Shown here: positions 42,564-55,634 of the stretch, piece by piece | Layout: every line of letters begins with the position of its first letter | Position numbering within the stretch: position 1 is the first letter of the stretch | From: Methylobacterium sp. 17Sr1-1 | GTDB taxonomy: Bacteria > Pseudomonadota > Alphaproteobacteria > Rhizobiales > Beijerinckiaceae | DNA length: 64,000 nucleotides | Direction of reading: 5' to 3' | Assembly (NCBI RefSeq): GCF_003173775.1 | Contig: NZ_CP029552.1 | Span: 3,706,001-3,770,000 of the forward strand | Program-made: the position numbers and the translations under genes | Notes under the pieces: model-generated | What the model was told of the DNA's origin: nothing | Database searches by the model: none | The model's input: only the letters and a program-made list of their open reading frames with translations

Positions 42564-44471
<1,908 letters not shown>

Positions 44472-44550
44472 CGCGTCCTCCCCGATCTTTTGTCCCATTC
44501 TGCGCGCGATCGGCGGGCGGGAAAAGACCGGGGACGGCAGGCCTTTGGGC

Positions 44551-44979
44551 TCAGGCCGGGCCGGCGCCCGTCGCGTCCGCCGGCACCGGCCGCGGGCGGC
44601 GGTTCTCGTCGATCGCCACGAAGGTGAACAGCGCCTGGGTGACCTTGATGGTCTCCTCGCTCTCCCGGGCGCGGCGCCAGGCCTCGATCTGGATGCGGAT
44701 CGAGGAGCGGCCGACCGAGACGATGTGGGCGTAGAGGCTGACCTCGTCGCCGACCACCACCGGCTGCAGGAAGGTCATGCCCTCGACCGCGATGGTGGCG
44801 CAGCGGCCCCGGGCGCGCCGCGCCGCCACGTTGCCGGCGGCGAGGTCCATCTGCGCCATCAGCCAGCCGCCGAAGATGTCGCCGGCCGGGTTGGTGTCGG
44901 CCGGCATGGCGATGGTGCGGATCACCGGCGGTCCCCAGCCGGCATCGGGGGCGCAAGGGGCGGACGAGGGGTCGGTCAT
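44551..44979 (-). CDS. Acyl-CoA thioesterase (YciA/hotdog family)
   Basis: The 142-residue protein has a hotdog fold of the YciA/BACH group that hydrolyses acyl-CoA to free acid and Co[34 protein letters not shown] contains the conserved Asn-Pro-x-Gly-x-x-Phe-Gly-Gly active-site helix. [24 protein letters not shown] and [19 protein letters not shown] segments follow. The start at 44979 fits the family. It is 49 bases after the stop of the malate/lactate-type dehydrogenase gene and may be the last gene of that run. In a citrate-cleavage context it could release CoA from acetyl-CoA or other products, but broad housekeeping is also possible. Confidence 0.88.
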
Positions 44980-45028
44980 CGGCGGCTCGGTCGCGGGGAG
45001 GGCATGGAAGGGTGAGTCTGACTGTGCG

Positions 45029-46090
45029 TCAGGGCATGGGCGCGAGCGACGCAGGATCGAGGCCATGGGCCTCCGCCAGCCGGTGCAGGTCGGCGCGGGT
45101 GTCCTCGGGCAGGAGCAGGCCGTCGCGCCGGTTCGCGGCATCGGCCCGGGCCTCGATCTCGCCGGGGTAGAACACCGCCTCGGCCCCTGCCGCGAGCGGC
45201 ACCGCCTTCATCTCGGCGATGAAGCGTTCCATGCGGGATTCGAACTCGGCCAGCGGCTGGAGCCGCGCGATGTCGATGGCGAGCGCCAGGTGCCCGGCGC
45301 CGCTGCGGCGCTCGGCCTGGTAGGGGCCGGCGACGCCCGCCCCGAAGGCACTGCCGGTCAGGACGCCCGAGAGTACGTCCATCACAGCCGAGATCGCGTA
45401 GCCCTTGTGCCCGGCCATCGGGGCGATCAGCCCGTCGATCGCCGCCTGCGGGTCGGTGGTCGGCCGGCCCTCCGCGTCCATGGCCCAGCCGAGCGGGATC
45501 GCCTCGCCGCGCTGGCGGGCGAGGTAGACCTTGCCGCGGGCCACCGCCGTGTTGGCGATATCGAGGACGAGCGGCGCGTGCCGGCCCGCCGGGGCGGCCC
45601 AGGACCACGGGTTGTTGCCGAGCGCCTTCACCCGCCCGCCCCAGGGGGCCATGGCGGGGCTGGCATTGGTGGAGAGGAAGCCGATGAACCCGGCCCGCGC
45701 CGCCCGCAGGGTGAAGTACATGGCGGTGCCGAAATGGTTGGAGTGGCGCACCGCCACGGCGCCGATCCCGTGGGCGCGCGCTCTAGCGATCGCCTCGTCC
45801 ATGGCGCGTGCGGCCACGACCTGGCCCATCGCCTCGCGCCCGTCGATCACCGCGAGCCCGCCGGCATCGACCACGACCTCCGGGATCGCGCGCGGATCGC
45901 AGGCGCCCGACGCCAGGCGGGCGGCGTACCAGGGCAGGCGCATCACGCCGTGCGACTGGTGGCCCAAGAGATCGGCCTGGACGAGGCTGTCGGCGCAGAT
46001 TTGCGCGTCGTCGGGGCTCAGGCCGGAGGCGGTATAGATCGCGGTGACGAAGGAGAGCAGGGCGTCGGCGGAGATTCGCGGGTCGGTCAT
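45029..46090 (-). CDS. Malate/L-lactate dehydrogenase family protein (Ldh_2)
   Basis: The 353-residue protein belongs to the NAD(P)-dependent family of YlbC/ComC-type malate, L-sulfolactate and ureidoglycolate dehydrogenases, which do not have a classical Rossmann fold. The motif LGHQSHGVMRLPWY carries the catalytic His. IGAVAVRHSNHFGTAMYF and STNASPAMAPWGGRVKALGNNPW are the cofactor and substrate segments. GHKGYAISAVMDVLSGVLTG is the final signature. It lies downstream of the 2-hydroxycarboxylate transporter gene. Oxidation of malate or another 2-hydroxyacid would fit that partner; the exact substrate is unknown. Confidence 0.9.
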   Translation of the reverse strand: MTDPRISADALLSFVTAIYTASGLSPDDAQICADSLVQADLLGHQSHGVMRLPWYAARLASGACDPRAIPEVVVDAGGLAVIDGREAMGQVVAARAMDEAIARARAHGIGAVAVRHSNHFGTAMYFTLRAARAGFIGFLSTNASPAMAPWGGRVKALGNNPWSWAAPAGRHAPLVLDIANTAVARGKVYLARQRGEAIPLGWAMDAEGRPTTDPQAAIDGLIAPMAGHKGYAISAVMDVLSGVLTGSAFGAGVAGPYQAERRSGAGHLALAIDIARLQPLAEFESRMERFIAEMKAVPLAAGAEAVFYPGEIEARADAANRRDGLLLPEDTRADLHRLAEAHGLDPASLAPMP

Positions 46091-46164
46091 GCGGCGTCTC
46101 CCGGTAGGCTTCTCTGGGCGGGCGGCGGAGCTGTCCAGACATAGACTTTGGCGCTGGAATCTCT

Positions 46165-46188
46165 CCTCTCCCCGCGGGCGGGGAGAGG
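46165..46188. repeat. 24-nt palindromic repeat, copy 2
   Basis: Arms CCTCTCCCCG and CGGGGAGAGG enclose CGGG, identical to 19709-19732; here the pairing extends four bases outward on both sides (46161-46192). Confidence 0.85.
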
Positions 46189-46232
46189 AGAGATCCGCGC
46201 CTCTTCTCGTGACGAGAGAGTTCGGCAACGGA

Positions 46233-46262
46233 ACGCGCCGCACCGTGAACGATGCGGCGCGT
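46233..46262 (-). terminator. Hairpin after the 2-hydroxycarboxylate transporter gene
   Basis: Perfect arms ACGCGCCGCA (46233-46242) and TGCGGCGCGT (46253-46262) with a ten-base loop lie thirty bases past the stop. No clear T run follows, so termination may be partial. Confidence 0.5.
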
Positions 46263-46292: not shown

Positions 46293-47684
46293 TCAGGCGA
46301 TCCACCGCATCACCACCAGCACCACCGTGACGGTGACGGCGCCGCCGATGCGGGTCGCGATCTGGGCGAAGGGCATCAGCTGCATGCGGTTGGCGGCGGT
46401 GAGGATGGCAACGTCGCCGGTGCCGCCCTGGCCCGAGTGGCAAGCATTCACGATCGCGGCCTCGATCGGGTACATGCCGAGGCGGCGGCCGACGAAGGCG
46501 CCGGTGACCATCAGGGTGAACACCGTCGCGATGATGGTGATCAGGTTCGGCACCGTGAAGGCCGACATCAGCTTGTCCCAGGGGGTGAGCGAGACGCCGA
46601 TGGCGAAGAGCAGCGGGTAGGTCATGCCGGTCTGCACGAACTTGTAGACCACGAAGCCGCCGGCCTGGAGGTGGGGCGAGACCGCGCTGGTGAGCTTGGC
46701 GAGCACCGCCAGGAACAGCATCGCGACCGGCGCCGGCAGGCCGATGACGTGGTGCAGCATCACGCCGAGGAGGTAGAGCGTCACGGCGGTGAGGCCCGCC
46801 GCCGCGATGGTCGAGACGTCCATGGCGCCGCCGCCCTTCTCGGCCGTCACGGCCTCGTCCTTGGGATCCATGTCGTCGTGCTCGCCCGGCTGCAGCCGGC
46901 CCTCGCCGGTCAGGTGCGGATACGTCTTGCCGACGAAGTTCAGGATGCCCGAGAACACGATGGCGGTGAGGCTGCCGAGCATGACCGGCGGCAGCACCTG
47001 GGCGAACAGGTCGCCTTGCGAGGCGCCGAGGATCGCCGCGTAGCCGATCGAGAGCGGGATCGCGCCCTCGCCGACGCCGCCGGCCATGATCGGCACGACG
47101 ATGAAGAAGAAGGTGTGGTAGGCGCCCAAGCCCAACGCCGTCCCGACCAGGGTGCCGACGATACCCGCCGCGATCGACCCTATGCCGAGCGGCACGAAGA
47201 TCTTCAGGAAGCCCTTGATCAGCACGCCGCGGTCCATGCCGAGGATGCTGCCGACGATGATCGCCGCGATGTAGAGGTAGAGGAAGTTCGTGAACTTGGT
47301 GAAGTCGATGATCGACTTCTCGATCTGCGGCGGGATCAGCTTGTAGTAGGCGAGGGCCGACGGAATGAAGGTGGCGAAGATGGCGCCGGCGCCGATGTTG
47401 CGCAGGATCGGCAGCCGCTTGCCGATCTCGGCGCAGGTGAAGCCGCCGAGCACCAGGACGGCGATCATCGTCGGCGAATCCGGCTTGATCTCGCGCTCGA
47501 GCGTCAGGATCGTCAGCAGCACGACCAGGATCAGGTAGACCGGGACCGGGATGATGCCGATCTTGATGTCCATCAGCCGCCACCAGCCCTGCGGCCAGAA
47601 TTTTTGGGAGCGCGCCGCGCCCATCTCGGCCGCCGGGGCGGGGGTCTCGCCGGGCTTGGCGAGGTTCACGGTTCCAGATGCCAT
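46293..47684 (-). CDS. 2-Hydroxycarboxylate transporter family protein (CitS/MaeN-like)
   Basis: The 463-residue membrane protein fits the 2HCT family, whose members import citrate or malate with Na+ or H+. The family GGxG hairpins are visible: PIMAGGVGEGAIPLSIGYA in the first half and NACHSGQGGTGDVAILTAANRMQLMPFAQIATRIGGA in the second. The second also carries the conserved Arg that binds the substrate carboxylate. A cytoplasmic loop rich in Asp and Glu (GEHDDMDPKDEAVTAEKGGG) divides the halves. It lies 221 bases after the ATP-citrate-lyase-like gene on the same strand. Import of citrate or malate for that enzyme is the likely job. Confidence 0.9.
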   Translation of the reverse strand: MASGTVNLAKPGETPAPAAEMGAARSQKFWPQGWWRLMDIKIGIIPVPVYLILVVLLTILTLEREIKPDSPTMIAVLVLGGFTCAEIGKRLPILRNIGAGAIFATFIPSALAYYKLIPPQIEKSIIDFTKFTNFLYLYIAAIIVGSILGMDRGVLIKGFLKIFVPLGIGSIAAGIVGTLVGTALGLGAYHTFFFIVVPIMAGGVGEGAIPLSIGYAAILGASQGDLFAQVLPPVMLGSLTAIVFSGILNFVGKTYPHLTGEGRLQPGEHDDMDPKDEAVTAEKGGGAMDVSTIAAAGLTAVTLYLLGVMLHHVIGLPAPVAMLFLAVLAKLTSAVSPHLQAGGFVVYKFVQTGMTYPLLFAIGVSLTPWDKLMSAFTVPNLITIIATVFTLMVTGAFVGRRLGMYPIEAAIVNACHSGQGGTGDVAILTAANRMQLMPFAQIATRIGGAVTVTVVLVVMRWIA

Positions 47685-47905
47685 CGATGTCCTCCCGAAC
47701 GCTGTTCTTCCGAGCGATCCGCTTCGAGTGATATTCTTGAGGCCTGTCCGGCCGTTTTTCAGGTGATCCCGTTCCTGCCGTAGGGAATTATTCAGGTTCT
47801 GGAAGATGATGGACTGTTCACACTACGGCAGCCCCGAGTCAAGCCAACTCTCACAGGATGATGTGTGCTGGCCCGACCCGGGGGCGATGCGGGAAGGACG
47901 CGCCG

Positions 47906-50611
47906 TCAGGCCACGAACTGGCAGCGCGAGGCGGCCGTCCGCGTGTCCATGTTGCGGCCGCGGTTCATGTGGTCGTCCACCTCCGCCGCGCAGCCGAGCA
48001 TGCGGGCGAACAGGAAGATCGTGAACGCCGCGGTCTCGAGCGCCGAGCCGGAGAGGGTGCCGTCGCGGTAGGGCTGCCACAGCATCTTCAGCAGCAGGGC
48101 CGCGATCACCGCGTCGATGTTGACGCAGTAGATAGTGCGCGACACGCCGGCGTCGAACAGGGCCTGCACCAGGGTCCGGTAATAGGCGTGGAAGGCGTTG
48201 TAGTCGCCGCGCTCAGTCAGCAGATCGTGGATCCAGACCTCGCGGGGATCGTGGTTCACTGCCTTGTCCTTGAAGACCGGGTGGTGGACGCCCGGGATCT
48301 TCTGGATGTCGAGGCTGCCGGCGTTCTTCCGGTCGGACTTGTAGCGGGCATACTCCGCCACCGTCCGCTCGGCGACCGCCTTCAGGTCGACGCCGTGATC
48401 CGGATCGGCGGGATCCGAGAGGTTTGCGTCGCGGAACTGCTCGATCAGGAAGGCGATGCCCTCGTAGCCGTTGCCGCCATGGGTGTAGCCGGCATGGGTG
48501 AGGAACCCGATCATCGCCTTGTTGAGCTGCACCCGCTCCGGGCTCTCCGGCCCGTCGGCCGAGACCGCGCCCTTGCACCCTTGCGCCGAGATCGTGCCCG
48601 GGCCGTTCGACAGGAGGAGCCCGATCAGCGTCTCGAACACGAAGACGTCGTCCGCCGTGCCGGCGCGGCCGAGGAGCGCGAGGCAGCCGATCTCGCCGAG
48701 GCTCAGGCGCCCGAGGAGGTCGGCCTGCGCCACGCCGCAGAACCCGTCCGCTTTGTGCAGCTCCGCCGGCACCGCGGCGCCCAGCAGCGTGCCGAAGAGC
48801 TGCAGCCACCAGGGCAGGCTTTCGGCGGTGAGGCGCGAGATGCGCTTGCGCATCAGCGGGCCCCAGGTCAGCGTCGTGGCGACCGCCGCCAGCACCGCCT
48901 CGCGGGTCGGGTGACCGTCGAGGCCGCGCAGGTAGCGCACGAAGACCGAGCGCGCGCCGCGGGCGTCCAGACCGGCGAGGAGCGCCTCTGCCTGCGGGTC
49001 CGGCTCGCGCCCGACGAGGAGCCCGGCGAGTTCCGCATCCGCCGCGACCTTGGCGAGGTCGAAGCCCTCGTCGAGGGCGTTGGGCAGCCCGGCTTCCGCG
49101 AAGCGATCGGTCAGCAGGCGGCAGAGCCGCCGGGCGGCCTCGGCGCGGCGCGGGCCGACGAGGCTGGCCGCCGCCGCCAGCACCACGTTCGGGGCGTTGC
49201 CGGCCTCGCGGGAGGCTTCGGCCGCCGCGAGCTCGGGGCGTCCATGCATGTTGACGCCGGCGGCTATGCCTGCGTTGACCAGGGCGCGGTCGTTCTCGCT
49301 CGCCTGCTCGCGCAGCAGGGCGAGGACGACGTTCGACTCCATCGGCAGGCGTGCCGCCTCCAGCATCGAGACGCCGTTGAGGCTCGTGACCTGCGTCTTC
49401 GGGTCCATCTGCGAGGCGCCCGAGGCGTCCTTCATCGCTTGCCGCGGCAGCACGACGCCGACCTGGCGGTTGAGCCGGGCGATCTGCTCGCCGTAGGGCG
49501 CCATCGCCTCGACGGGGGCCAAGTCGAGCTCCGGCGGCAGGGTCAGGCCGGCATTCGAGCCGAACCACGGCTTGAGGGCGAGGTTGCTCTCGGGCGCGAA
49601 GTCGGGCCGCGCGCCGTTCTCGCGCATCACCGCGGTGAGCGCCGCCGGGATATGGGCGATGTTGGTGACCACCGCGCCCTTGGCCGAGACGACCGGGTTC
49701 TCGGGCGTGAACACGCCGTCGACCCCGAACTTGTCCATGAACCACCGCTCCTTGGCGGCGGCGTCGTCGTCGCCCCCCGCCATGGCGCCGGCATGGCCCA
49801 CCGCCCGGGTGAGCCGGCTCTTCCAGCGCCCGACGACGCAGGCGACGACGGGCTTGGTGAAGTGCGCGTCCTGCTCGTAGTAGCCGCCGGGCTCGACGTA
49901 GAGCACCGCCGCCTTGCTGCGCGCGTCGTTGGCGAGCGCGAAGGCGAATTCCGGCGCCGCGTACTGGATGTAGACGTCCTTGCCGCAGGAGATCAGCGTG
50001 GTGGTGCCCCAGCCGCTCATCCGCAGGTAGGTGGCGATGGTGGTGGTGAAGTTGCCCGAGTTCGAGAAGATCGCGATCGAGCCGGCCTTCAGCGCCTCGC
50101 CCGGGCCGTCGCCGCCGAGCGCCCCGCCGATGCGAACCTGATGGTGGGCATCGGCCACGCCGAGGCTGTTGCCGCCGAAGATGTCGATGCCGTTCTGCTG
50201 GCCGAGCGCCCGGATCTCGCGGCTGTCGTGGACCGACAGCTTCTCGGTGACGATGAAGATCTTGCGCAGGTCCGGATTGACCCGGATCAGCTCGGCGACG
50301 CCGTCGCGGGCACCCGACGGCGGCAGGTAGACGACGCCGCAATTGAAGCGGTGCCCGGCCTCCAGGCCTTCGCGGACGTTGTTGTAGACCGGGATGGTGC
50401 CGAGCGGGGTCTCCAGCACCTGGCCGCGGCGGCCGGGCGAGGTGCCGAACACCACGTTGCCGCCCGAATAGGCGTGGCCGACCGGCGTGACGTCGCTCGA
50501 TTCGCCGCCCAGGATGTTGAGCACGCAGACCCGGTCCTCGCGCGTGGCGACCTGGTCGAGCGAGCTGATGCCGACGTAGTACTTGAAGCTGCCGATGCCT
50601 GGCTTGTGCAT
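47906..50611 (-). CDS. ATP-citrate-lyase-like large subunit (CoA ligase + citrate-synthase-like domain)
   Basis: The 901-residue protein has a CoA-binding/ligase half (about 1-330) and a citrate-synthase-like half (about 640-900) joined by a long Ala/Leu-rich helical region of some 300 residues. Phosphohistidine His273 is in TRAVGHAGAMAGG. In the C-terminal half the lyase residues His776/777 (GVHHPV) and Asp833 (NIDAVIA) are present. The His that precedes Gly-Pro in animal ATP-citrate lyase appears as Asn669 (LLSNGPGTISAQG). The enzyme should make citryl-CoA from citrate, ATP and CoA and split it to acetyl-CoA and oxaloacetate, but the His-to-Asn change makes the lyase step uncertain. Its small-subunit gene lies 15 bases upstream. 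Confidence 0.82.
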   Translation of the reverse strand: MHKPGIGSFKYYVGISSLDQVATREDRVCVLNILGGESSDVTPVGHAYSGGNVVFGTSPGRRGQVLETPLGTIPVYNNVREGLEAGHRFNCGVVYLPPSGARDGVAELIRVNPDLRKIFIVTEKLSVHDSREIRALGQQNGIDIFGGNSLGVADAHHQVRIGGALGGDGPGEALKAGSIAIFSNSGNFTTTIATYLRMSGWGTTTLISCGKDVYIQYAAPEFAFALANDARSKAAVLYVEPGGYYEQDAHFTKPVVACVVGRWKSRLTRAVGHAGAMAGGDDDAAAKERWFMDKFGVDGVFTPENPVVSAKGAVVTNIAHIPAALTAVMRENGARPDFAPESNLALKPWFGSNAGLTLPPELDLAPVEAMAPYGEQIARLNRQVGVVLPRQAMKDASGASQMDPKTQVTSLNGVSMLEAARLPMESNVVLALLREQASENDRALVNAGIAAGVNMHGRPELAAAEASREAGNAPNVVLAAAASLVGPRRAEAARRLCRLLTDRFAEAGLPNALDEGFDLAKVAADAELAGLLVGREPDPQAEALLAGLDARGARSVFVRYLRGLDGHPTREAVLAAVATTLTWGPLMRKRISRLTAESLPWWLQLFGTLLGAAVPAELHKADGFCGVAQADLLGRLSLGEIGCLALLGRAGTADDVFVFETLIGLLLSNGPGTISAQGCKGAVSADGPESPERVQLNKAMIGFLTHAGYTHGGNGYEGIAFLIEQFRDANLSDPADPDHGVDLKAVAERTVAEYARYKSDRKNAGSLDIQKIPGVHHPVFKDKAVNHDPREVWIHDLLTERGDYNAFHAYYRTLVQALFDAGVSRTIYCVNIDAVIAALLLKMLWQPYRDGTLSGSALETAAFTIFLFARMLGCAAEVDDHMNRGRNMDTRTAASRCQFVA

Positions 50612-50626
50612 GGTGTCCTCCCCTTC

Positions 50627-51937
50627 CTATTCGGCCGCCTGGAGCGACGCTTTTTCGAGCACCGGCTTCGCCAGCCCGATGGCGCGGGCCACCTGCTCGC
50701 GGCCGCCCTGGCGCATCCACTGATCGGCCTGGCGGGCGTAGGCGACGACCTCGCTCATGTCCGAATCGAAGCCGAACAGCCGGTAGGGCAGGCCGAGCGC
50801 CTCGGCGGTGTCGCGCAGCGCCCCCATGCCGCGGATGAGGTTCGGGCCGCCGCGCCCGGCGACGATGTAGAGCGGGGTCGGCCCGTGCCGGCCGACATGC
50901 TCGCGCAGGGCGTCGGCCATCGCCCGGAAGGTCTCGAAGATGTCGGTGTTGTTCGACTTGCCGCCGATGATGAACAGGACGTTCGACTGCTTCAGCCAGT
51001 GCTTGAAGCAGATGCGCGCCACCTCCTTCATCTTCTCGTAGGGCGGGTTGCCGCCGAAATCCGAGGAGATGATCGCGTCGTCGCCGAGCATCTCGGTGAC
51101 CAGCGAGTTGGCGCCGCCGCCGAAGGTCGGGGCCAGGATGGTGCCGGATGAATTGATGATGCAGACGTCGCTCTGGCCCTGGTAGGTCCGGAGCTGGTTG
51201 ATCTCGGCCTCGAAGTCCGAGTAATCGACCGAGAACAGGTGGCCGGGCAGGCCGAGCCGCTGCCAGCGCGGGTCGTCGCGGTCGAAGCCGCACTTGAAGT
51301 CGCAGGCCACCGGGGTGAGCCGGCCGTTGCGGTCGGGCCGCATCCGGATCGGGTTCAGCTCGACCGTGGTCATGCCGAAGCCGTGATAGAGTTCCCAGAG
51401 CTTGGGCAATTGCTGCACCAGGGGCGAGATCAGCGCCTTCGGGGCGTTCAGCTCCGAGAGGGCGTTCGCCACCACGAAGGCCTTGAGACCGGTCAGCGGA
51501 TCGAACGGGACCTGGACGACCTCGCCCTTGTCGAGCTCCTCGATGTCGACGCCGCCCTTGTGGGTGAGGGTCATCGTCGGCGCGCGGTAGCGCGTGCTGT
51601 CGGAGATCGAGAAATAGACCTCGTGCTCGGCCGGCACGGCGCCCTCGAAGGTGACGCCGTTGGCCTTGGCGACGACGTTGCCGTGGCGATGCTCGACGAA
51701 GTAGAGCCGCTCCTTCTCGCGCAGAGCCGTCTTCAGGTCGTGGGCGCGGCCGAGGAGGCCCGCCTTGCCCTTCTTGCCGACGCCGCCCTTGAACACCGGC
51801 TTGATGAAGACCGAGCCGTGGCGATCGATCAGGCCCTTGATCTCTTCTTCGCTCGCGTCCGGCCCCAGCACCTCGGCCGTGGGAAATCCTGCGAATTGCA
51901 GGAGATTCGCGCCGTGCAGCATGCCCGTGACTTGCAT
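50627..51937 (-). CDS. ATP-citrate-lyase-like small subunit (ATP-grasp)
   Basis: The 436-residue protein resembles the beta part of ATP-citrate lyase and succinyl-CoA ligase. The ATP-grasp region runs over about 1-240: FIKPVFKGGVGKKGKAGLLG for the nucleotide and MTTVELNPIRMR for the metal-binding end. The C-terminal half has a ligase/citrate-binding fold with TFGGGANSLVTEMLGDDAIISSDFGGNPPYEKM and IIGGKSNNTDIFETFRAMADAL. A GGAGG sits eight bases before the ATG. It is the first gene of the run (small subunit, large subunit, 2HCT transporter, dehydrogenase, thioesterase). The two-subunit form is seen in some Magnetococcus-type and alphaproteobacterial ATP-citrate lyases. Confidence 0.85.
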   Translation of the reverse strand: MQVTGMLHGANLLQFAGFPTAEVLGPDASEEEIKGLIDRHGSVFIKPVFKGGVGKKGKAGLLGRAHDLKTALREKERLYFVEHRHGNVVAKANGVTFEGAVPAEHEVYFSISDSTRYRAPTMTLTHKGGVDIEELDKGEVVQVPFDPLTGLKAFVVANALSELNAPKALISPLVQQLPKLWELYHGFGMTTVELNPIRMRPDRNGRLTPVACDFKCGFDRDDPRWQRLGLPGHLFSVDYSDFEAEINQLRTYQGQSDVCIINSSGTILAPTFGGGANSLVTEMLGDDAIISSDFGGNPPYEKMKEVARICFKHWLKQSNVLFIIGGKSNNTDIFETFRAMADALREHVGRHGPTPLYIVAGRGGPNLIRGMGALRDTAEALGLPYRLFGFDSDMSEVVAYARQADQWMRQGGREQVARAIGLAKPVLEKASLQAAE

Positions 51938-52298
51938 CGTTTCCTCCGTGCTCGTTGAGTTGCACGGTAGGGAGCGAAACTGTCAGTAACCTGTCGCGGG
52001 GCGGGCGGGGCGCTCGGGTGGAAGAAATCGGCGCGGGGACTTCCCCCTATCCCCGCGGTCAGCAGGGCTCCTCAGGGGAAAACCCTTTCGAGAATCAAGA
52101 GCGGGATCCCCTCTCCCGAGTGGGAGAGGGGTAGGGGTGAGGGTGGCTCGGGTTCAGAATTCAGCACTGAGCATCGAGCTGCGCAGCTCGATGGTTCAGG
52201 ATCATTGCGGAAGCCGAGCCACCCTCACCCCCGGCCCCTCTCCCGCACGGGAGAGGGGAGACCCGCGCTTAATCTTCAAAGCGAAGTTATGCTGCCCC
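51938..52298. other. Intergenic region with large palindrome
   Basis: Apart from the palindrome at 52101-52266 the stretch contains only the upstream region of the ATP-citrate-lyase operon, which starts at 51937. No sigma-54 promoter or clear operator was found there. No gene is seen. Confidence 0.5.
52101..52266. repeat. Large palindromic repeat, copy 1
   Basis: The outer arms read CCCCTCTCCCG...CGGGAGAGGGG, next inside are GAGGGTGGCTCGG and CCGAGCCACCCTC, and at the centre is CGAGCTGCGCAGCTCG. The whole can fold into one long hairpin. A related element lies at 55681-55855. Confidence 0.85.
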
Positions 52299-53384
52299 TC
52301 ACCGCCCCTCGATCGCCCTTCTCCACTGCCGCAGCGTCCGGCTGCGCTTGATCTGGTCGAGGGAGGTCAGGAGCTCCGGCCCGACCGGGATCGGCCGCAG
52401 GGCGGCCGCGCGGGTCATCGGATCGTCGGGCGCGCGGGCGTCCGCGCGGGCGGGCGTGACCGAGCGGGCGGCGAGCAGCGCCTGGCCTTCCCGGGAGAGC
52501 AGGTAATCGAGGAACAGCCGGGCCGCCGCCTTGTGCCGGGCCTGCTTCGGGATGAGCGCGATGCGCGAGGTGACGAGCGTGTAGTCGCTCGGCAGCACCA
52601 CCCCGACGGCCGGATCCTGCTTCGCCCGCTCGCGCGCATAGGAGCCGAGCACGTCGTAGGCCAGCAGCGCCTCGCCGGCGGAGACCCGGTCGAGCATCGT
52701 GGCGGTGGCGGTGTAGAGCTTCACCCCGACCTGGCCCAGAGCCCGGACCGCGTCCCAGGTCCGCGGCGTCACCTCCAGGTTCTGGGTCAGGAACAGGAAG
52801 CCGACGCCGCTGCGCTCGGGGTCGTAGGTCGCGACCTTGCCCTGCCACTCCTCGGGATGCCGGATCAGGCTCTGGACGAATTCGGCGTGGCTGCGCGGCA
52901 CCCGCGCCTCGGGCAGCAAGTTCCGGTTATACGCGATGGCGACCGGCTCGGCGGTGATGCCGTAGGCCTCGTTGCGCCACACCGCCCAGGCCGGCCACCC
53001 GTCGGTCTCGCCCGAGACGTGGCGCTCGGCGTAGCCGTCGTTGACGAGCTTGATCTGGAGATCCATCGCCGAGCTCCAGAGGACGTCCGCCGTGCCCCCG
53101 CCCGATCCGGCCTCGGCCAGGAACTCGTCGTAGAGCCGCGACGAGTTCATCTTGGAATACGACACCGCGACGGCCGGAAAGCGTTGCCGGAAGCCGGCGA
53201 GAAGAGCCGAGGCCTCCGCCTCGTCGGTCGTCGCGCGCACCACGACCGTGCCCTCCCGCACGGCCTCGGCGCGGCCTGCGGCCTGCGCGTCGACGGGCGG
53301 GTCGACCTGGGCGCGAGCAATCGGGATCCAGGCGGAGCCGAGGAGGAGGGCGAGGCTCACCCATGCGGCCGTCAGGGTCCTCAC
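52299..53384 (-). CDS. Periplasmic substrate-binding protein (Fe3+/carboxylate ABC type)
   Basis: This 361-residue protein has a signal peptide (LTAAWVSLALLLGSAWIPIARAQ) and the two-lobed fold of the AfuA/FbpA cluster. ADVLWSSAMDLQIKLVNDGYAE and AYGITAEPVAIAYNRNLLPEA are in lobe 1, and KQARHKAAARLFLDYLLSREGQALL near the C-terminus is the usual hinge motif. No ABC permease follows. It is divergent from a TctD/TctE-like two-component system, as in several proteobacteria where such a protein assists the sensor. The start is a GTG at 53384 with AGGAAGAGG nine bases ahead; a TTG at 53390 is possible but too close. Confidence 0.85.
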   Translation of the reverse strand: MRTLTAAWVSLALLLGSAWIPIARAQVDPPVDAQAAGRAEAVREGTVVVRATTDEAEASALLAGFRQRFPAVAVSYSKMNSSRLYDEFLAEAGSGGGTADVLWSSAMDLQIKLVNDGYAERHVSGETDGWPAWAVWRNEAYGITAEPVAIAYNRNLLPEARVPRSHAEFVQSLIRHPEEWQGKVATYDPERSGVGFLFLTQNLEVTPRTWDAVRALGQVGVKLYTATATMLDRVSAGEALLAYDVLGSYARERAKQDPAVGVVLPSDYTLVTSRIALIPKQARHKAAARLFLDYLLSREGQALLAARSVTPARADARAPDDPMTRAAALRPIPVGPELLTSLDQIKRSRTLRQWRRAIEGR

Positions 53385-53547
53385 TCTCAAAAACCTCTTC
53401 CTGCCCCAAGGTTTCCGGTTGCCCGCGGCGGTCGCCGCGGCGAGGATCGCACGCTACAGGCTCGCGCGGCGATCTCCTAACCCGGGCGGCGATTCCTCGT
53501 CGCCGGGGCGAGGGCGCGCGACGATCCGAAGGGGAGGGGACGGCGGG

Positions 53548-54210
53548 ATGCGGGTGCTCGTCGTGGAGGATGACGCGGCCCTGGCGCGCGGCCTCGTGGC
53601 GGCGCTCCGGGCGGCCGGGCACGCGGCCGATCACGAGCCGGACGGCACGGCGGCGGCGGGAATCGCCCTGTCGGAGCCCTACAGCCTGATCGTGCTCGAT
53701 ATCGGCCTGCCGGGCCTGTCCGGGTTCGAGGTGCTGCGGCGCATCCGGGCGGCGAGCGCCGTCCCGGTGCTGATCCTCACCGCCCGCGACGGCATGACCG
53801 ACCGGGTGCACGGGCTCGATCTCGGGGCCGACGACTACCTGGCGAAGCCCTTCGCGCTGCCCGAGTTCGAGGCGCGGGTGCGCGCCCTGATCCGGCGCGG
53901 CCAGGGCCAGCGCAGCCCGGTCCTGCAATGCGGGGGCCTCGTCCTCGACCGCTCGTCGGGAGCCGTCACCCTCGCCGGCGAGGTCCTGTCCTTGCGGCGC
54001 CGGGAGCTCGCGGTGCTGGAGGTGCTGATGGCGAGGGCCGGGCAGGTCGTGCCGAAGGAGCGGCTCGCCGGCGAGGTGTTCGGCTTCGACGACGAGGTGG
54101 CGCCCAACGCCCTTGAGCTTTACGTCGCGCGCCTGCGCAAGAAGCTGCAGCCGGACGGGCCGGAGATCCGCACGATCCGCGGCCTCGGCTACCTCCTCGA
54201 CGCCCGATGA
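53548..54210 (+). CDS. tctD: OmpR-family response regulator, TctD-like
   Basis: The 220-residue protein has an acidic pair (VVEDDAALARG), phosphorylated Asp51 (LIVLDIGLPG), Thr in ILTARDG and Lys in YLAKPFALPEF. The winged-helix part ends with PNALELYVARLRKKLQPDGPEIRTIRGLGYLL. The pattern fits the TctD/QseB group. Its stop overlaps the start of the kinase gene by four bases (ATGA). TctD regulates tricarboxylate uptake in Salmonella. The adjacent ATP-citrate-lyase and 2HCT transporter genes make them its probable target. The symbol is given on similarity and context. Confidence 0.82.
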   Translation: MRVLVVEDDAALARGLVAALRAAGHAADHEPDGTAAAGIALSEPYSLIVLDIGLPGLSGFEVLRRIRAASAVPVLILTARDGMTDRVHGLDLGADDYLAKPFALPEFEARVRALIRRGQGQRSPVLQCGGLVLDRSSGAVTLAGEVLSLRRRELAVLEVLMARAGQVVPKERLAGEVFGFDDEVAPNALELYVARLRKKLQPDGPEIRTIRGLGYLLDAR

Positions 54211-55634
54211 GCCGGCGCCCGCCTTCCCTCCGGCGCGGGCTGATGCTCAGGATGCTCCTGCCGGCCGCGGTGCTGGCGGGGGTGCTCGGCCTCGGCGGCG
54301 CCCTCGTCATCCGGGACGTGGTCGAGACGACGCATGACCGGCTGCTCGACGGCTCGGTGCTGGCCATCGCCGAGCGCCTGGCGCTCGACGAGGACAACGA
54401 GGTGACGGTGGACCTGCCGCGGGTGGCGCTCGGCATGCTGGAGAGCCAGTCGCAGGACCGGGTCTATTACAGCGTCAGCTACCGCGGTCAGCTCGTCACC
54501 GGCTACCGCGACCTGCCCCGCCCCGACGAGGAGGTCGAGCCCGGCCCCACCCGGCACCGGGACGCGGTGATGCGCGGCGCGGCCGTCCGGATCGCCGCCC
54601 GGGCGCGGAGGGTCTACGGCAAGCCCGGCGCGGTGCTGGTGCAGGTGGCCGAGACGCGGGACGCGCGCAGCAGCCTCGAACTCCGGCTCCTCGGCGGCCT
54701 CGTCCTGCTCGAAGGCGTCCTCCTGGCGCTCGTCGGAATCCTGACCTGGTACGGGATCGGCCGCGGCCTCGCGCCCCTCGACCGCCTGAGCGCCGAGATT
54801 GCCGGGCGCGCCGCCCCCGGCGCGGTGAGCCTCCAGCCCCTCGACGTCTCGGCGGTACCGGTGGAGGCCAGGGCGCCGGTCCTCGCCTTCAACACGCTGC
54901 TGGGGCGGCTCGACGAGGTGATGGGGGCGGTGCGCCGCTTCACCGGCGACGCCTCGCACCAGATGCGCACGCCGCTCGCCGTCCTGCGCATGCACGTCGA
55001 TCTCGCCCGCCGGCACGAGGCGGGCACGGCGCCGGAGGGCCGCGCCGCCCTCGACGACATCGAGGGCGCGGCGCGTCGCCTGGAGCACCTGCTCGCGCAG
55101 CTCCTGGCGCTCGCCCGGGCCGACGAGGATCCGGGCGCGATCGCCCTGACGGAGCTGGATCTCGCAACAATCGCCGCGACGGTGCTCGCCGACCACGTGC
55201 CGCGGGCGCTTCGCGCCGGCATCGAGGTCGAGTACGAGGGGCCCGACGGGCCCGTGATGGTGACGGGCCACCCGACCCTGGTGGGCGAGATCCTCAGCAA
55301 CGTCATCGACAACGCGATCCGCTACGCCGGGACCGGCGCCCGGGTGGTGGTGCGGGTGGCGGACTCGGGCGTGGGCGCCTTCGCCGAGGTCGAGGATGAC
55401 GGGCCGGGCATTCCGCCGGAGCACCGCGAGGCGGTGTTTTCGCGGTTCTACCGCATCGCGCGAAGCGACGGACCGGAGGGCAGCGGCCTCGGCCTCGCCG
55501 TCGTTCGGGCGCTCGCCGACCGGATCGGTGCGGCGGTGACGCTGCACGACGGGGCGGGCGGTGAGCCGGGCTTGCGGGTGAGGATCGTGTTTCCACCGGT
55601 TCCGGCGCGAGCGGCTGGTCCTGGCGGAGGTTGA
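54207..55634 (+). CDS. tctE: Sensor histidine kinase, TctE-like
   Basis: The 475-residue membrane kinase has a first helix (MLRMLLPAAVLAGVLGLGGALVI) and a periplasmic 2CSK_N-type domain. A second helix (LLLEGVLLALVGILTWYGI) and a HAMP region follow. The H-box DASHQMRTPLAVLR with His251 is the TctE/QseC variant. N-box NVIDNAIRYA, G1 EDDGPGIP and G2 EGSGLGLAV are complete. It overlaps tctD by four bases. In its family the periplasmic domain binds citrate or similar acids, and the neighbouring citrate-type genes support this here. Confidence 0.85.
   Translation: MSRRPPSLRRGLMLRMLLPAAVLAGVLGLGGALVIRDVVETTHDRLLDGSVLAIAERLALDEDNEVTVDLPRVALGMLESQSQDRVYYSVSYRGQLVTGYRDLPRPDEEVEPGPTRHRDAVMRGAAVRIAARARRVYGKPGAVLVQVAETRDARSSLELRLLGGLVLLEGVLLALVGILTWYGIGRGLAPLDRLSAEIAGRAAPGAVSLQPLDVSAVPVEARAPVLAFNTLLGRLDEVMGAVRRFTGDASHQMRTPLAVLRMHVDLARRHEAGTAPEGRAALDDIEGAARRLEHLLAQLLALARADEDPGAIALTELDLATIAATVLADHVPRALRAGIEVEYEGPDGPVMVTGHPTLVGEILSNVIDNAIRYAGTGARVVVRVADSGVGAFAEVEDDGPGIPPEHREAVFSRFYRIARSDGPEGSGLGLAVVRALADRIGAAVTLHDGAGGEPGLRVRIVFPPVPARAAGPGGG

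What the first reader, a model, noticed from the sequence alone, without database searches (positions are those of the whole stretch)
47906..51937. ATP-citrate-lyase-like pair with transporter, but an Asn where the canonical lyase has His
The large subunit keeps the phosphohistidine (His273), GVHHPV (His776/777) and the Asp in NIDAVIA (Asp833). The His before Gly-Pro in animal ATP-citrate lyase reads as Asn669 here, and a helical insert of about 300 residues separates the ligase and lyase halves. The neighbouring 2-hydroxycarboxylate transporter and malate/lactate-type dehydrogenase support a 2-hydroxyacid substrate. The enzyme may cleave citrate, or it may have moved to a related acid.
Basis: partly seen in the sequence, partly recalled or inferred. 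Interest (0 to 1): 0.72.

Follow-up and report, generated by a model that had tools for sequence, protein, structure and literature searches.

The report
Citrate-splitting enzyme with spare lyase copy
Two neighbouring genes in a Methylobacterium-like bacterium encode a probable ATP-driven citrate-splitting enzyme of a little-studied type, whose puzzling 'insert' looks like a second, worn-out copy of the enzyme's own lyase domain and whose odd asparagine is shared by every relative examined.

Summary
The pair (small 50627-51937, large 47906-50611, minus strand) is a two-subunit ATP-citrate lyase (ACL) of the 'type II' kind postulated for Magnetococcus and tubeworm symbionts. Asn669 is not an oddity of this gene: it is Asn in all 242 aligned sequences (window and 241 relatives), Magnetococcus marinus MC-1 included. 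The matching His is also missing in 21 of 120 stand-alone citryl-CoA lyases. His776 is not conserved; His777, Asp833 and His273 are. The 'helical insert' (about 336-584) looks like a degenerate first copy of the lyase domain: its profile matches the second copy at score 50.5, against at most 23.6 in 100 permutations, and its separate model matches citryl-CoA lyase best. Citrate is the best-supported substrate: one of four unrelated citrate/tricarboxylate carrier types lies nearby in 48 of 81 loci, never two together. The genome has no POR_N match, so the role is probably citrate breakdown, not reductive-TCA CO2 fixation. My paper searches showed no report of the tandem lyase or this carrier-linked branch. 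Activity is untested.

The parts
50627..51937 (-). Small subunit (436 aa): ATP-grasp plus citrate-binding domain
   Evidence: PF16114 Citrate_bind E 9e-16 and PF08442 ATP-grasp_2 E 1e-11, both over cut-off; best solved relatives 6hxq_B citryl-CoA synthetase and 6hxi_A; NNTD and RGGPN motifs in 114 of 114 small-subunit rows, 108 distinct loci because six loci were held twice
49607..50611 (-). Large subunit residues 1-335: citryl-CoA synthetase / succinyl-CoA synthetase alpha-like ligase half
   Evidence: PF13607 E 1.5e-9; best solved relative 6hxq_A citryl-CoA synthetase small subunit, E 1.9e-33 over 26-294
49793..49795 (-). His273 codon, phosphohistidine position
   Evidence: His in 242 of 242; aligned with the GHAGA motif of the ligases
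48860..49606 (-).
47909..48859 (-). Large subunit residues 585-901: second, apparently active lyase copy
   Evidence: hhalign to citryl-CoA lyases probability 98% over 226-231 columns; His711, His777, Asp833 and Arg870 in 242 of 242
48605..48607 (-). Asn669 codon (where most citryl-CoA lyases and citrate synthases have His)
   Evidence: Asn in 242 of 242 aligned sequences and in the window plus 110 locus proteins; aligned column in 120 citryl-CoA lyases is His 99, Ala 20, Asn 1
48494..48496 (-). His706 codon, invariant His not seen in citryl-CoA lyases
   Evidence: His in 242 of 242; aligned column in 120 citryl-CoA lyases is Thr 105, Ala 10, Ser 3, Val 2
48281..48283 (-). His777 codon, catalytic-type His of the lyase copy
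   Evidence: His in 242 of 242; aligned column His in 120 of 120 citryl-CoA lyases
48113..48115 (-). Asp833 codon, catalytic-type Asp of the lyase copy
   Evidence: Asp in 242 of 242; aligned column Asp in 119 of 120 citryl-CoA lyases
46293..47684 (-). 2-hydroxycarboxylate transporter (CitS/ccs-like), the only match of its family in the genome
   Evidence: PF03390 E 4e-140; TIGR00783 450 bits, below its cut-off of 549; single match in 6.54 Mb
45029..46243 (-). Malate/L-lactate-type dehydrogenase (Ldh_2); start codon uncertain
   Evidence: PF02615 E 4e-122; the BLAST probe found it near the pair in the window only, of 81 loci
44551..45141 (-). YciA-like acyl-CoA thioesterase (start uncertain)
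   Evidence: NF007970 E 3e-39, below cut-off; a relative lies near the pair in 7 of 81 loci including the window
53548..55634 (+). Two-component system, response regulator (53548-54210) and sensor kinase (54207-55634); regulator resembles TctD
   Evidence: best NCBIfam match of the regulator is TctD, 223 bits, below cut-off 337; relatives of the regulator in 21 and of the kinase in 16 of 81 loci including the window
52299..53390 (-). Periplasmic solute-binding protein
   Evidence: PF13416/PF13343; relatives in 19 of 81 loci including the window

Best explanation
This is a type II ATP-citrate lyase from a carrier-linked, probably heterotrophic branch, used to break down imported citrate. Citrate (and possibly related tri- or hydroxyacids) enters by the 2-hydroxycarboxylate transporter. 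The small subunit binds ATP and citrate; the ligase half of the large subunit passes phosphate through His273 and makes citryl-CoA. [quoted passage not shown] The middle copy of the lyase domain keeps no conserved His and probably acts as a scaffold, so that one chain supplies what two lyase subunits supply in ordinary ACL. SHOWN by sequence or model: the domain order, the family membership, the fixed Asn, the resemblance of the two copies, the recurring carriers. INFERRED: activity, substrate, the catalytic role of the C-terminal copy, the scaffold role and any alpha2beta2 assembly.
For: Both subunits match citryl-CoA synthetase and ACL, with the citrate-binding domain over its cut-off; small-subunit motifs NNTD and RGGPN fixed in 114 rows from 108 loci. 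Large subunit 56% and small 69% identical to the MC-1 pair (L178); [quoted passage not shown] Lyase copy: His777 and Asp833 invariant at columns that are His 120/120 and Asp 119/120 in citryl-CoA lyases. Tandem copy. Substrate: a CitMHS-family citrate carrier starts 16-23 bases past the matched end of the large subunit in 3 loci (L086: TIGR00784 citrate:proton symporter, 586 bits, cut-off 260; L094 and L109: 88% identical to it and PF03600), a TcuC-type symporter is near in 28, TctA in 12, 2HCT in 5, never two of these in one locus, 48 of 81 in all; TcuA/TcuB in 5. Role: no POR_N match in the genome; its only 2HCT gene adjoins the pair. PMC6783814 (passages read): citrate cleavage is detected in MC-1, which has only the postulated type II genes for it.
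Against: No purified type II ACL is described in the passages I read; they call it 'postulated' or 'putative'. Two CoA-contact positions of human ACLY (H900, R976; PMC10115795) appear as Asn and Pro here. 33 of 81 loci show none of the four carriers; 16 of these 33 are on stretches under 22 kb, one of 3.2 kb. The carriers used as probes came from these same loci and no random-locus background was run. The 80 loci are the best of a capped list (67-89% identical), so distant branches are under-sampled. TcuC, 2HCT and TctA carriers also move other acids. The TctD and CitS matches are below their curated cut-offs.
Confidence: 0.78

Rival explanations
1. The enzyme cleaves a relative of citrate (2-methylcitrate, homocitrate, citramalate, malate) by the same ligase-then-lyase chemistry, and Asn669 reflects the change of substrate.
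For: Asn669 and Pro778 depart from the usual His and Arg/Lys. The 2HCT carrier family and the adjoining Ldh_2 dehydrogenase suit several 2-hydroxyacids.
Against: The Asn does not separate this branch from the rest: it is the same in the Magnetococcus and tubeworm-symbiont proteins linked in print to the reductive TCA cycle. CitMHS and TcuABC partners point to citrate and tricarballylate. Ldh_2 was found beside the pair only in the window, of 81 loci. The motifs in the citrate-binding region of the small subunit are fixed.
Confidence: 0.12
2. The lyase half is not the site of cleavage; as proposed for human ACLY ('model 2'), the citrate-synthase-like part loads and unloads CoA allosterically and cleavage happens in the ligase half, so the loss of the His matters little.
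For: PMC10115795 (abstract and passages read) argues this for human ACLY, where H900 and R1065 help hold non-productive CoA. Type II has lost the H900 and R976 equivalents and one whole copy is degenerate, as relaxed catalytic demand would allow.
Against: His711, His777, Asp833 and Arg870 remain invariant in the second copy, which relaxed demand would not predict. Stand-alone citryl-CoA lyases, where the lyase must do the chemistry, also lack the His in 21 of 120.
Confidence: 0.25
3. An enzyme of the reductive TCA cycle fixing CO2, as proposed for Magnetococcus.
For: Same gene family.
Against: No POR_N match in the single-contig genome, while the family is found in 10 of 14 control genomes. 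The window lies in a separate 33-row clade (100/98) of mostly Burkholderiales, Zoogloeaceae and Methylobacteriaceae. Six loci of the Magnetococcus side had none of the four carriers.
Confidence: 0.03
4. The middle region is only a helical linker that AF2 and profile methods happen to place near citryl-CoA lyase.
For: Foldseek E-values for the separate model do not reach 0.001 (best 2.7e-3). Helical folds give middling Z by chance (the tool quotes up to about 14). The first copy does not match a citrate-synthase-only profile (probability 0.1), and its PDB sequence search gives only chance-level rows.
Against: Sequence-only profile match to the second copy far above 100 permutations and a reversed control, in colinear order; separate match to citryl-CoA lyase; the 23 best rows are all citryl-CoA lyase or ACL chains aligned at their lyase module.
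Confidence: 0.07

Closest known systems
Type II ATP-citrate lyase postulated in Magnetococcus marinus MC-1 (Mmc1_3638/3639) and tubeworm endosymbionts
   Same: Homologous over the full length of both subunits (56% and 69% identity to L178); same Asn, same two-copy lyase region, small gene beside large
   Different: Window belongs to a separate clade, in a genome without a POR_N match, beside a citrate-type carrier; six Magnetococcus-side loci have no such carrier
Type I two-subunit ACL (Chlorobium limicola) and human ACLY
   Same: Ligase plus citrate-synthase-like lyase; phosphohistidine; lyase His and Asp (D1026 type)
   Different: One lyase copy per chain there, two here; the H900 equivalent is Asn; the R976 equivalent is Pro (mapping to human numbers partly from recall)
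Citryl-CoA synthetase plus separate citryl-CoA lyase (Hydrogenobacter; also L180)
   Same: Nearest solved relatives of the ligase parts by sequence (6hxq) and of the first lyase copy by fold (6hxp)
   Different: Three separate genes there; here the ligase and two lyase copies are fused
Citrate synthase
   Different: Profile of the active copy is nearer to citryl-CoA lyase (score 94, 226 columns) than to the citrate synthase set (score 40, 43 columns); the first copy here is longer

Membership tests
ATP-citrate lyase in the broad sense | ATP-grasp plus citrate-binding domain in one subunit | tested here: met
   PF08442 and PF16114 over cut-off
ATP-citrate lyase in the broad sense | Ligase domain with phosphohistidine | tested here: met
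   PF13607 over cut-off; His273 242/242
ATP-citrate lyase in the broad sense | Fused lyase domain of citrate-synthase fold with catalytic His and Asp | tested here: met
   hhalign 98%; model; His777 and Asp833 invariant. Note: no lyase family model is over its cut-off in the window protein
ATP-citrate lyase in the broad sense | ATP- and CoA-dependent cleavage of citrate | not testable with these tools
   Needs an assay
Type I ACL / ACLY | His at the position of human H900 | tested here: not met
   Asn669 in 242/242. The match of the column to H900 itself rests on the citryl-CoA lyase alignment and on my recall of the human sequence
Type I ACL / ACLY | One lyase copy per large chain | tested here: not met
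   Two similar copies
Type II ACL (Magnetococcus type) | Full-length homology of both subunits to the MC-1 pair | tested here: met
   56% and 69% identity to L178; MC-1 protein P0121 and named P0123 in the family
Type II ACL (Magnetococcus type) | Small and large genes side by side | tested here: met
   15 bases apart in the window; small subunit found in 80 of 81 loci, within 75 bases in 78; the one without is a 3.2-kb contig
Reductive TCA cycle enzyme (a role, not a sequence family) | 2-oxoglutarate/pyruvate:ferredoxin oxidoreductase (POR_N) in the genome | tested here: not met
   PF01855 no match in the 6.54-Mb single-contig genome
[quoted passage not shown]
   One 901-aa ORF; the split form is seen in L180
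Citrate synthase | Sequence closer to citrate synthase than to citryl-CoA lyase | tested here: not met
   Score 94 against 120 citryl-CoA lyases, 40 against 15 citrate-synthase-family proteins; unequal sets, so a guide only

The most novel reading that the evidence does not exclude
Type II ATP-citrate lyase is a living parallel, or relic, of the step that turned citryl-CoA lyase into citrate synthase. Its lyase half is a fused tandem of two citryl-CoA lyases with a dead first copy, so that two chains would do the work of the four in ordinary ACL (alpha2beta2 in place of alpha4beta4). It cleaves citryl-CoA without the classical enol-stabilising His, with Asn669 and the type-II-specific His706 taking its place. 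It serves citrate breakdown in heterotrophs, not only CO2 fixation.
Probability: 0.35. Interest if true: 0.75.

Novelty: new variant of a known kind. Interest (0 to 1): 0.57.

Why it matters
It turns a vague 'helical insert' into a testable piece of enzyme evolution: a second, degenerate lyase domain inside a citrate-cleaving enzyme. Solved citrate synthases also show a second, weak N-terminal match to citryl-CoA lyase, so the type II enzyme may show how such a tandem behaves half-way. It supplies a natural, family-wide change at the positions of human H900 and R976 for the open argument over whether the citrate-synthase-like module of ACL is catalytic or allosteric (PMC10115795). It also suggests that genes labelled only 'CoA-binding protein' or 'succinyl-CoA synthetase alpha subunit' in Methylobacterium, Paraburkholderia and other records are a citrate-utilisation enzyme, and that type II ACL alone should not be read as a mark of the reductive TCA cycle.

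Tried and rejected
Considered and dropped: (1) Asn669 as an anomaly of this gene: rejected by 242/242 and by the window plus 110 locus proteins. (2) An alternative His at the aligned position: none; residues 640-705 of the window protein hold no His; His706 aligns with Thr/Ala/Ser/Val of citryl-CoA lyases. (3) A direct family hit for the lyase half of the window protein: none over a Pfam cut-off. 28 of 47 members of A2 match PF00285 at E up to 1 (best 1.2e-10), but the window is not one of them; NCBIfam citryl-CoA lyase matches the window at 37 bits, cut-off 212. (4) Profile search of 331-901 against PDB gave one weak row (8qwb citrate synthase, E 0.47); of 336-604 seven weak rows, 8qwb second (E 0.32), the others unrelated. 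(5) Family scan of the first copy alone: citryl-CoA lyase models in at most 4 of 47 members, best E 0.01, amid chance rows; suggestive only. (6) First clustering of neighbour ORFs was spoiled by antisense ORFs, so the counts rest on named probes. (7) First copy against a citrate-synthase-only profile: no match (probability 0.1); against a mixed set led by the window genome's citrate synthase, 35%. (8) Root of the large-subunit tree: not usable, outgroup branch 10. (9) Isocitrate lyase: one match, 44 bits, over Pfam's cut-off of 26 but covering only positions 149-247 of 526; read as a superfamily member, not proven. (10) Geometry of Asn669 and His706: coordinates are not given to the script box.

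Not in print: the tandem lyase and the carrier-linked branch were not seen in the listings, nor in the passages read from PMC6315080, PMC5441870, PMC3522073, PMC10115795, PMC6783814, PMC5459899, PMC11237513, PMC9871338, PMC9560492. The library holds open-licence papers only. Verschueren 2019, Huegler & Sievert 2011 and Williams 2006 were not read.


Full report
THE OBSERVATION. Both ORFs are exact: small 50627-51937 and large 47906-50611, minus strand, 15 bases apart. The small subunit carries ATP-grasp and citrate-binding domains and the large one a succinyl-CoA-ligase-like domain, all over curated cut-offs. By sequence the nearest solved structures are the two subunits of citryl-CoA synthetase 6hxq (small subunit also archaeal and human ACL; large subunit then succinyl-CoA synthetases). 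The genome is one 6.54-Mb contig, window at 3706001-3770000, with one full-length copy of the gene. The nearest named protein, 97% identical, is from Methylobacterium sp. 174MFSha1.1.

FAMILY. Two searches of the protein collection gave 2916 and 3003 relatives, of which the best 120 each were listed. [quoted passage not shown] Thiel et al. 2012 (PMC3522073, passages read) and the Magnetaquicoccus paper (PMC6783814, passages read) use the name type II ACL and call it putative or postulated; [quoted passage not shown] The window pair is 56% (large) and 69% (small) identical to the MC-1 pair in L178.

ASN669. In an alignment of 242 different proteins (window, the 240 listed relatives, and one from L004) the position is Asn in 242; His273, His777 and Asp833 are also invariant; His776 is His only in the window and L004 (otherwise Asn 220, Gly 17, Ser 3). 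It is also Asn in the window plus 110 proteins read from loci. Profile alignment of residues 585-901 with citryl-CoA lyases (probability 98%, 226-231 columns) puts Asn669 on the column of the conserved His. Among 120 stand-alone citryl-CoA lyases, the best listed of 3849 relatives of one of them, that column is His 99, Ala 20, Asn 1, while the His777 column is His 120/120 and the Asp833 column Asp 119/120. So the His is not universal elsewhere either; whether those 21 proteins are active is not known to me. In human ACLY, H900 and R1065 help hold non-productive CoA, R976 binds CoA and D1026 is essential (PMC10115795, abstract and passages read). The residue after His777 is Pro in 242/242, where 118 of 120 citryl-CoA lyases have Arg or Lys. 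One new His, His706, is present in 242/242; citryl-CoA lyases have Thr, Ala, Ser or Val there. It is a candidate for the missing role; I could not measure distances.

SUBSTRATE AND ROLE. A scan of named genomes gave 80 loci (the best 80 of 514 from a capped scan, 67-89% identical to the window). The probe found the small subunit in 80 of 81 loci including the window, within 75 bases in 78; the one without, L088, is a 3243-base contig. Neighbour probes found a TcuC-type symporter in 28 (probe: NF011656 tricarballylate/proton symporter TcuC, 754 bits, cut-off 445), TctA of the tripartite tricarboxylate transporter in 12, the 2HCT carrier in 5 and CitMHS in 3 (probe L086: TIGR00784 citrate:proton symporter, 586 bits, cut-off 260; L094 and L109 PF03600): 48 of 81, never two in one locus, 43 within 4 kb and 31 within 500 bases. 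TcuA and TcuB, known for tricarballylate oxidation, are present in 5. 33 loci showed none of the four, 16 of them on stretches under 22 kb; one of the 33 (L090) has a TRAP binding protein 89 bases off and one (L093) has TcuA and TcuB. Six Magnetococcus-side loci (L178, L181-L185) had none; the basal alphaproteobacterial locus L179 has TctA and TctC. No random-locus background was run. The genome has one 2HCT match, the gene beside the pair, no POR_N match, a full citrate synthase and only a partial isocitrate-lyase-family match (44 bits, over cut-off, 99 of 526 positions). In a ligase-half tree of 54 rows the window falls in a 33-row clade (100/98) of mostly Burkholderiales, Zoogloeaceae and Methylobacteriaceae, apart from Magnetococcus and tubeworm symbionts; the root is unusable. 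In the phylum sample of 398 genomes, by my reading of the listing, 34 other genomes have a near full-length copy and 4 a partial one; in the class sample of 289, one besides the own genome.

MECHANISM. Best reading: citrate import, ATP-driven formation of citryl-CoA through phospho-His273, cleavage in the second lyase copy, with the first copy as scaffold. The chain of activity is inferred. The chief doubts are the missing assay and the unsettled argument over where ACL cleaves citryl-CoA.

VERDICT. The finding is real; its central anomaly is ordinary for the family. Two things look new in what I could search: the duplicated lyase domain and the carrier-linked branch outside the Magnetococcus and tubeworm-symbiont group.

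Noticed in passing
   Followed up: partly
P0241-P0360 (stand-alone citryl-CoA lyases): 20 of 120 have Ala and 1 has Asn at the His position, some of them named from Nitrospinota or Candidatus Acidulodesulfobacterium; these enzymes may not need that His.
   Followed up: partly
window 48494-48496: His706, invariant in 242 type II sequences and never His in 120 citryl-CoA lyases.
   Followed up: partly
window 52299-55634: A solute-binding protein and a divergent two-component system with a TctD-like regulator; relatives of these sit near the pair in 16-21 of 81 loci, possibly the citrate sensor.
   Followed up: partly
window 42564-44498: A sigma-54-dependent activator downstream of the thioesterase; the probe found no relative near the pair in the other 80 loci.
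   Followed up: partly
window 47858-51151 (+) and 48213-51965 (-): Very long overlapping ORFs (1097 and 1250 aa) in other frames over the pair, taken as shadows of high G+C coding.
   Followed up: no
L178:5207-7105: In the MC-1 locus the ACL pair lies next to an ORF that looks like a transposase (by eye), a hint of mobility.
   Followed up: no
window 46293-47684: The 2HCT carrier is the only match of its family in the genome, and the family is found in only 2 of 14 control genomes.
   Followed up: yes
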